A stretch of 48,382 nucleotides of DNA from Acidobacteriota bacterium (lineage in GTDB: Bacteria; Acidobacteriota; UBA6911; RPQK01; JADFOI01), in contig JADFOI010000008.1 in assembly GCA_022562935.1 (NCBI GenBank), positions 827-49,208 of the forward strand, in the 5' to 3' direction. The notes under the pieces were generated by a model. The model was not told the origin of the DNA and did not search any database. It was given only the letters and a program-made list of their open reading frames with translations. A program made the translations under genes and the position numbers. This document shows, one piece after another, positions 36,546-38,303 of this stretch (position 1 is the first letter of the stretch; each line of letters opens with the position of its first letter).

Positions 36546-38303
36546 ATGGCCAAAGACTGGGCTTTTGTGGATCGATTCACATCGGATAAACCCTTCGAGC
36601 TCCCCGCAGATGCCTTTCCCCCACCGGAACGGATAGACACCGTGTCGGTCTCCCAGGCCGATGATGTGCGAGCCACCGACCCCGTGATCTGGCTCACCCA
36701 CAAGAGCATTTCCCGCTGTTATCCCTGGTGGATCGCCGACAACTACCACATGATGAATGATGTTCTGGAGGGGGATCCCGTCTGGGTTGCCTTCTGAGAG
36801 AACTGCAGCTCCGGGGGAGCTTATTTAAGCAGGTCCGACGGCATCGATCTCACCTTTTTTACGCCTGGACTTTACAACGCCACGGCGGCGGCCAAGGATC
36901 ATCAGACCAACAACTGGTGGTCTCCCAACGACGGTGTCTGTCTTGCCGGACCCAGAGCGGGCCAGATCCTGCCCCGCATACCGCTTTACAACGGTACCTT
37001 TGAAGATTTTTGCCGGCTGCATCCCCAGGGAGAAGTGATGGTTTGGAATCACCCTACCCATCGTGACGGCCGCCATGGTCACGGCTCCGACGAGTTTCCC
37101 GGCCGGGTAGGGGTGAAAAAACATTTCTACGACACCATCCAACTAGGCGATCTCGACCCCAGACTTCAGGAAAACGAGATCGTGCTGGGCATCAATGAGG
37201 ACTTCGGCCCACTGGCAGTTCCCCGTGTGGAGATCTGGAAAGAGGATTTCGTGCTCAACACCACGGTCGGTGAGGTTCCCTTTGTAGCCCTGTGCCTGCC
37301 TTCGACACACACCATGGGAGCCTACCATCGGTCGGTGGATGGGGAGGTGATCTCGCTGAGTCGCTCAGGCGATTCTTTTCTCGACGATTCCTCCGGTTCA
37401 CTGTGGAATGTCGAAGGCCGCTGTGTGGAAGGACCCTGGGCCGGCAAATCTCTCCCGCCCCTGAACTTTGCCACCCTGGAGTGGCATGCCTGGGTTTCCT
37501 ATCATCCTGAAACAGAGATCTATAAAAGCCCAACCCAACAGACCCTCATGGAGGTCCAGGACCCCTGTTTGGCGAAAGTCTGTCGACTCATTGGCGAAAA
37601 TCACACCATTGAGCGGCAGTGGCCGGTACTGAAAGCATGGCTGCCGGAGCGTGCCGATTCTGGAGTCGAGGTGGTGATCGAGAGCCACCCCCTACGCCTC
37701 TTTCATTTCACAGGGGCCCGCGAAGGGGAGGATTGGGCGTTTTGCCGTAAACACAGTGCGGGCAGCGGCTGCCTTGCCGCTACCAGCTTTCCGGAAAGTC
37801 TCTACTCCGATCCAGCTCACCAGGAACGGCTGCCTGAGGATCAGATCCAGTGGTCTCCTCTGATTGAAAACGGTGAGATCAAGGAGGTTCTGGAAACGGT
37901 ACGCACCCACTGTTCACTGGACCATCCGACTTTTCCCACATTGGGGGAGTTCGTTGAGCGCCTGGAGGAGGCGGGTTACCGGGTCCGCCAGAGCCGATAT
38001 CTTCTCAGCTCTGAGCTCACAGCCCGGGCCGAAGTGGGATTTTCCTTAATGATTGGACGGGACCGCTGGCAGTTGTTCCGCTTCCCTTCCCGGAAACTGG
38101 CTGCCCAGGAGGCGAAAAGAAGAGGACACTGTATCCAGGCGGGAAAATTTCTACTTTGGTCCGATCCCCCCGGCATGTACGTGCAGTGGCTGACCCTGAC
38201 CCGCCCCGATCATGAAGTTTCCTGGTCCGAGGCACTCCAGGATGAAGCCTTCCGGACTCTGATCGAAGATTTTGGGGACCTAGCCTTGAAAATGCAAGGA
38301 TAG
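36546..38303 (+). CDS. DUF3179-family protein, probable selenoprotein with in-frame TGA (Sec84) in a UxxC motif
   Basis: AGGAGG SD then ATG 36546. Frame runs 36546-38303 with a single TGA at 36795-36797 and no other stop. DPVIWLTHKSISRCYPWWIADNYHMMNDVLEGDPVWVAF-U-ENCSSGGAYLSRSDGIDLTFFTPGLYNATAAAKDHQTNNWWSPNDGVCLAGPRAGQILPRIPLYNGTFEDFCRLHPQ matches DUF3179, with TGA replacing the first Cys of the family CPLC motif. Confidence 0.85.
36802..36834 (+). promoter_or_regulatory. Putative bacterial SECIS stem-loop
   Basis: CUGC-AGCUCC-GGG-GGAGCU-(UAUUUAA)-GCAG. 6-bp apical stem with G-rich loop about 16 nt after the UGA, plus a 4-bp lower stem. Confidence 0.6.

What the first reader, a model, noticed from the sequence alone, without database searches (positions are those of the whole stretch)
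36795..36834. SECIS-like stem-loop directly after the UGA
UGA-gagaaCUGC-AGCUCC-GGG-GGAGCU-uauuuaa-GCAG. A perfect 6-bp apical stem with an all-G loop lies about 16 nt after the UGA, with a second 4-bp stem below an asymmetric bulge. Bacterial SECIS elements are hairpins inside the coding region immediately 3' of the UGA with G in the apical loop, so geometry and position fit SelB recruitment.
Basis: partly seen in the sequence, partly recalled or inferred. Interest (0 to 1): 0.85.

Follow-up and report, generated by a model that had tools for sequence, protein, structure and literature searches.

The report
SECIS hairpin in a DUF3179 selenoprotein
The hairpin just after an in-frame UGA is very probably the signal that makes this marine Acidobacteriota bacterium insert selenocysteine into a DUF3179-family protein; it is a good new example of a known mechanism in a family already listed as selenoprotein-containing.

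Summary
The hairpin is present as described: UGA 36795-36797, 6-bp stem 36807-36812/36816-36821, GGG loop 36813-36815. It lies in a gene that continues in frame to 38303 (585 aa with UGA=Sec, Pfam DUF3179). Folding energy alone is not unusual (z -0.69). Comparative evidence is strong. The UGA is kept at the same codon in every close relative covering it. The nine codons after it are identical at synonymous sites in relatives with only 51-55% synonymous identity overall. Across DUF3179 homologs a strong apical hairpin follows 27 of 29 UGA sites and 0 of 17 Cys sites. One Sec subclass shows clear compensatory changes. The genome has SelA, SelB, SelD (with its own UGA), tRNA-Sec(UCA), and about a dozen further likely selenoprotein genes. 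The lower 4-bp stem (36803-36806/36829-36832) is found only in the closest relatives and is probably not essential. DUF3179 (UxxC/T) is already listed as a selenoprotein family, so this is a new member of a known kind. No Sec incorporation was measured. Minor leads: the DUF3179 domain is an internal duplication with a weak Rieske-like fold signal; this subfamily carries a duplicated C-terminal extension.

The parts
36530..36535 (+). AGGAGG Shine-Dalgarno-like sequence, 10 nt before the ATG
   Evidence: read from sequence
36546..38303 (+). Selenoprotein gene: 585 aa with UGA read as Sec (U84), stop TAG; DUF3179 domain residues 31-323 plus a C-terminal extension
   Evidence: translation with TGA=U; PF11376 E=1.3e-35; same ORF with one TGA in relatives
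36795..36797 (+). In-frame UGA, inferred Sec codon 84, first residue of the UxxC motif (UENC)
   Evidence: aligned with an invariant Cys/Sec column across DUF3179
36807..36821 (+). Apical SECIS hairpin AGCUCC-GGG-GGAGCU (6 bp, GGG triloop)
   Evidence: fold; synonymous conservation; Sec/Cys contrast
36803..36832 (+). Lower 4-bp stem CUGC/GCAG with 7-nt one-sided bulge; present only in the closest relatives, probably not essential
37551..38300 (+). C-terminal extension (residues 336-585), itself an internal duplication with no Pfam match
   Evidence: hhalign of halves 99.7%; no Pfam hit

Best explanation
The UGA at 36795 encodes selenocysteine 84 of a DUF3179 protein. The stem-loop at 36807-36821 acts in the mRNA as a bacterial SECIS element: SelB carrying Sec-tRNA(Sec) (UCA anticodon) docks on the G-containing apical loop and delivers Sec to the ribosome at the UGA, giving a full-length 585-aa protein with a UxxC selenol/thiol pair. 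Shown by sequence and comparison: frame, conserved UGA, conserved hairpin, Sec machinery, Sec/Cys exchange. Inferred: SelB binding, efficiency, and that the UxxC site is redox-active.
For: Single frame across the UGA matching one Pfam domain on both sides. UGA at the identical codon in all subfamily loci covering it, in genome records and metagenome contigs. Codons 85-93 identical at 9/9 in L051 and L058 although overall synonymous identity is 0.51 and 0.55, and only 3/94 and 0/78 other windows are as conserved. Strong G-loop hairpin after 27/29 Sec sites vs 0/17 Cys sites, nominal p about 1e-10, robust to looser criteria. Compensatory changes in the Sec subclass with the +20 hairpin: 77/77 cells paired, 4 of 7 pairs changed on both sides, 0/500 shuffles reach the covariation score. 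SelA, SelB, SelD with its own UGA, tRNA-Sec(UCA) in the same genome. About a dozen other likely selenoprotein genes with hairpins mostly of G-first triloops, including SelD with UAGCACC-GGA-GGUGCUA. DUF3179 is listed as a UxxC/T selenoprotein family (PMC9312934, PMC13188914).
Against: Folding energy not exceptional (z -0.69). Within this subfamily the stem is nearly invariant, so it has no covariation of its own. L061/L062 carry an A.C mismatch that breaks one stem pair, although L061 also lacks residues 117-403 and may be a decayed gene or misassembly. The nearest Cys homolog L064 keeps an 8-9 bp hairpin there without a G-first loop. Spacing to the loop (15 nt) sits at the edge of the published model. 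SelA is also present in most Cys-homolog genomes, so machinery alone does not discriminate. No protein or ribosome data.
Confidence: 0.95

Rival explanations
1. The UGA is a true stop or a nonsense mutation/sequencing error, and the downstream frame is a remnant or a separate gene; the hairpin is incidental.
For: Gene callers start the downstream part separately: the closest proteins P0002-P0009 begin after the UGA; hairpin energy is ordinary.
Against: UGA conserved at one codon in independent genomes and metagenomes down to 69% protein identity; both sides belong to one Pfam domain; downstream protein strongly conserved; TGA aligns with Cys in homologs.
Confidence: 0.02
2. The UGA is read through, but by another residue (for example Trp or Cys by near-cognate readthrough) without need of the hairpin.
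For: No residue identity is available from these data.
Against: UGA aligns with an invariant Cys column, hairpin specific to UGA homologs, full Sec machinery; the neighbouring amidohydrolase gene ends in UGA at 36504, so UGA is not generally a sense codon.
Confidence: 0.01
3. The UGA is Sec, but this stem arises only from amino-acid constraint on ENCSSGGAY and codon bias, and the real SECIS is another structure nearby.
For: 1.5-3.6% of synonymous recodings form an equally strong hairpin; an alternative fold competes in a 101-nt context.
Against: Synonymous codons are frozen exactly over the hairpin and not downstream; homologs with different peptides have hairpins of different sequence in the same or nearly the same place.
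Confidence: 0.02

Closest known systems
Bacterial SECIS (bSECIS) elements, e.g. E. coli fdhF and the bSECISearch consensus model
   Same: In-frame hairpin immediately 3' of UGA, 6-bp upper stem, small loop with G at positions 1-2, coding-region location
   Different: Loop 15 nt after the UGA (model 16-37); triloop GGG; sequence unrelated to fdhF (fdhF comparison from general knowledge)
DUF3179 selenoproteins (PF11376, UxxC/T; ascribed to Zhang and Gladyshev 2007, listed in PMC9312934 and PMC13188914)
   Same: Same Pfam domain, Sec at the first position of UxxC
   Different: This subfamily has UENCSSGGAY and a duplicated C-terminal extension; other Sec-DUF3179 here have U(T/S/V)LCHTG or UPLA/UPLC/UPLT motifs and other hairpins
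Rieske ferredoxin-type domains (e.g. PDB 5cxm, 5bok, 2qpz)
   Same: Foldseek probability 1.00, TM normalised to target 0.53-0.58 over about 90 columns
   Different: E-values only 0.01-0.04 and no Rieske sequence match; UxxC in place of recognisable Rieske ligands (inference)

Membership tests
bSECIS element | Hairpin immediately downstream of an in-frame UGA within the coding region | tested here: met
bSECIS element | Upper stem 4-16 bp, apical loop 3-9 nt, G in first two loop positions | tested here: met
   6 bp, GGG; model from PMC13188914
bSECIS element | Spacing UGA to loop 16-37 nt | tested here: inconclusive
   15 nt intervene, first loop base is the 16th; same spacing in the Sec-DUF3179 class with CCACACC-GGUCU-GGUGUGG
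bSECIS element | MFE <= -7.5 kcal/mol | tested here: met
   -8.0 apical hairpin alone, -12.6 whole element; not met in relative L061 (-3.6)
bSECIS element | SelB binding and Sec-dependent readthrough | not testable with these tools
   needs experiment
Selenoprotein | UGA aligned with conserved Cys in homologs; UGA conserved in other Sec-decoding genomes | tested here: met
Selenoprotein | Sec biosynthesis and insertion genes in the same genome | tested here: met
   SelA, SelB, SelD, tRNA-Sec
DUF3179 (PF11376) | Match over gathering score | tested here: met
   123.7 bits vs cutoff 27
Rieske iron-sulphur protein | Sequence family match or significant fold match | tested here: not met
   no Rieske Pfam match; no Foldseek E <= 0.001
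Rieske iron-sulphur protein | Two Cys and two His 2Fe-2S ligands | not tested
   no residue-level structural alignment available

The most novel reading that the evidence does not exclude
DUF3179 is a duplicated Rieske-like fold in which the cluster-binding loop of the first half has become a selenol/thiol (UxxC) redox or metal site, and the long subfamily here is a distinct enzyme class with a new C-terminal duplicated domain.
Probability: 0.25. Interest if true: 0.55.

Novelty: new member of a known kind. Interest (0 to 1): 0.32.

Why it matters
It corrects a gene that automatic annotation would split or truncate, adds a Sec-DUF3179 subfamily from marine Acidobacteriota, and points to a genome with many likely selenoprotein genes. 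The Sec/Cys contrast in DUF3179 is a clean natural data set for what a bacterial SECIS must contain: three hairpin classes of different sequence occur at two or three positions in one family. It also gives a first structural lead for a family of unknown function.

Tried and rejected
Rfam scan of the window: no match. Folding energy as a criterion: not informative. The lower stem as a functional part: rejected beyond the closest relatives. SelA or tRNA-Sec presence as a discriminator of Sec vs Cys homologs: not discriminating, nearly all genomes tested have both. PDB sequence search: no relatives. NCBIfam: none. Fold search: only marginal Rieske-like matches. The original 2007 paper was not held. 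Thresholds of the Sec/Cys test were chosen after seeing the hairpins, so looser ones were also run.

Full report
Observation. RNA folding gives this as MFE and centroid structure at -12.6 kcal/mol, but shuffles do about as well (z -0.69). The apical stem has pair probabilities of 0.90 or more in 33-, 51- and 161-nt contexts and about 0.48 in a 101-nt context, where another fold competes. The loop begins 15 nt after the UGA. Equally strong G-loop hairpins follow 1.4% of all TGA trinucleotides in this genome (0.24% at exactly this position) and arise in 3.6% (1.5%) of random synonymous recodings of the same peptide. The hairpin alone would thus be weak evidence.

Gene. The UGA interrupts one open frame, 36546-38303, preceded by AGGAGG at 36530-36535. 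With UGA read as a residue it is 585 aa with one Pfam domain, DUF3179, spanning residues 31-323 on both sides of the UGA (E 1.3e-35). U84 lies in VWVAFUENCSSGGAY, and the aligned column is Cys or Sec in all 18 homologs of alignment A2. The neighbouring amidohydrolase gene ends in UGA, so UGA is an ordinary stop elsewhere.

Machinery. The host genome G000 (its relatives' records are titled Acidobacteria) has tRNA-Sec (71.4 bits, UCA anticodon), SelA, SelB and SelD above curated cut-offs; SelD itself has an in-frame TGA. A scan for in-frame TGA with strong hairpins, checked by eye for redox motifs and partly by Pfam, gives about a dozen likely selenoprotein genes: AhpC/TSA types, DsbA types, deiodinase-like, CMD. 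Their hairpins mostly have triloops beginning with G; SelD has UAGCACC-GGA-GGUGCUA. The GGG loop in the window fits this set.

Conservation. In the subfamily (91% to 69% protein identity, genomes and metagenomes) the UGA is always at the same codon. In L051 and L058, where synonymous codon identity is 0.51 and 0.55, the nine codons after the UGA are all identical, against 3/94 and 0/78 other comparable windows. The identity ends shortly after the apical hairpin; the lower CUGC/GCAG stem is lost in L051, L058 and L061. The lower stem is therefore not a conserved part.

Sec versus Cys. Across DUF3179 homologs from about 40 genomes and several metagenomes, 27 of 29 distinct UGA sites have a strong G-loop hairpin 13-25 nt downstream and 0 of 17 Cys sites do (p about 1e-10). 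With looser criteria the contrast stays (27/29 vs 1-4/17). Sites share ancestry, so the p-value is nominal. Three classes occur: AGCUCC-GGG-GGAGCU at +15 (here), CCACACC-GGUCU-GGUGUGG at +15, and a 7-8 bp stem at +20 or +21 with loop CGUGU or GUU. The last class shows compensatory changes at 4 of 7 pairs with all 77 cells paired. Exceptions: L034 has a bulged stem; L061/L062 have an A.C mismatch, and L061 lacks residues 117-403, so it may be a decayed or misassembled copy. The Cys homolog L064 retains an 8-9 bp hairpin without G at the loop start, possibly a relic or chance.

Mechanism. The best reading is a bacterial SECIS that recruits SelB with Sec-tRNA to UGA 84. Shown: frame, conservation, Sec/Cys exchange, machinery. 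Inferred: SelB binding, efficiency, redox role of UxxC. Confidence 0.95.

Known or new. Two reviews list DUF3179 (PF11376, UxxC/T) among selenoprotein families, from the Olavius algarvensis symbiont study of 2007; that paper could not be read here. This is therefore a new member of a known kind. No NCBIfam model matches it. Additional leads: the two halves of DUF3179 are homologous (hhalign 99.9%) with Sec only in the first; AlphaFold models (pLDDT 85-88) match Rieske ferredoxins with probability near 1 but E-values of about 0.007-0.05; and residues 336-585 are a second internal duplication (99.7%) without a Pfam family. These are leads, not claims of membership.

Noticed in passing
G000 contigs C20:6231, C26:35594, C19:38464, C32:33446, C182:8517, C106:15704, C147:15147, C156:12990, C188:38467, C131:13100, C91:12588, C84:17455: About a dozen further likely selenoprotein genes in the same genome (AhpC/TSA, DsbA, deiodinase-like, CMD, SelD) with hairpins mostly of G-first triloops.
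   Followed up: partly
G000 C19:34538-36451 and C24:2-1735: Two SelB genes 92% identical; either a true duplication or a second strain in the assembly.
   Followed up: partly
window 36633-37061 and 37167-37550: The two halves of the DUF3179 domain are homologous (internal duplication), with a weak Rieske-like fold signal.
   Followed up: yes
window 37551-38300: C-terminal extension is a second internal duplication without a Pfam family.
   Followed up: partly
window 38319-38914 (-): VapB antitoxin (PF09957) and PIN-domain (PF01850) pair directly downstream, on the opposite strand.
   Followed up: partly
L064: Cys homolog of the same long subfamily keeps an 8-9 bp hairpin at the SECIS position without a G-first loop: possible SECIS relic.
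   Followed up: partly
L061 69-821: Relative with residues 117-403 missing and a mismatch in the SECIS stem; decayed gene or misassembly.
   Followed up: partly
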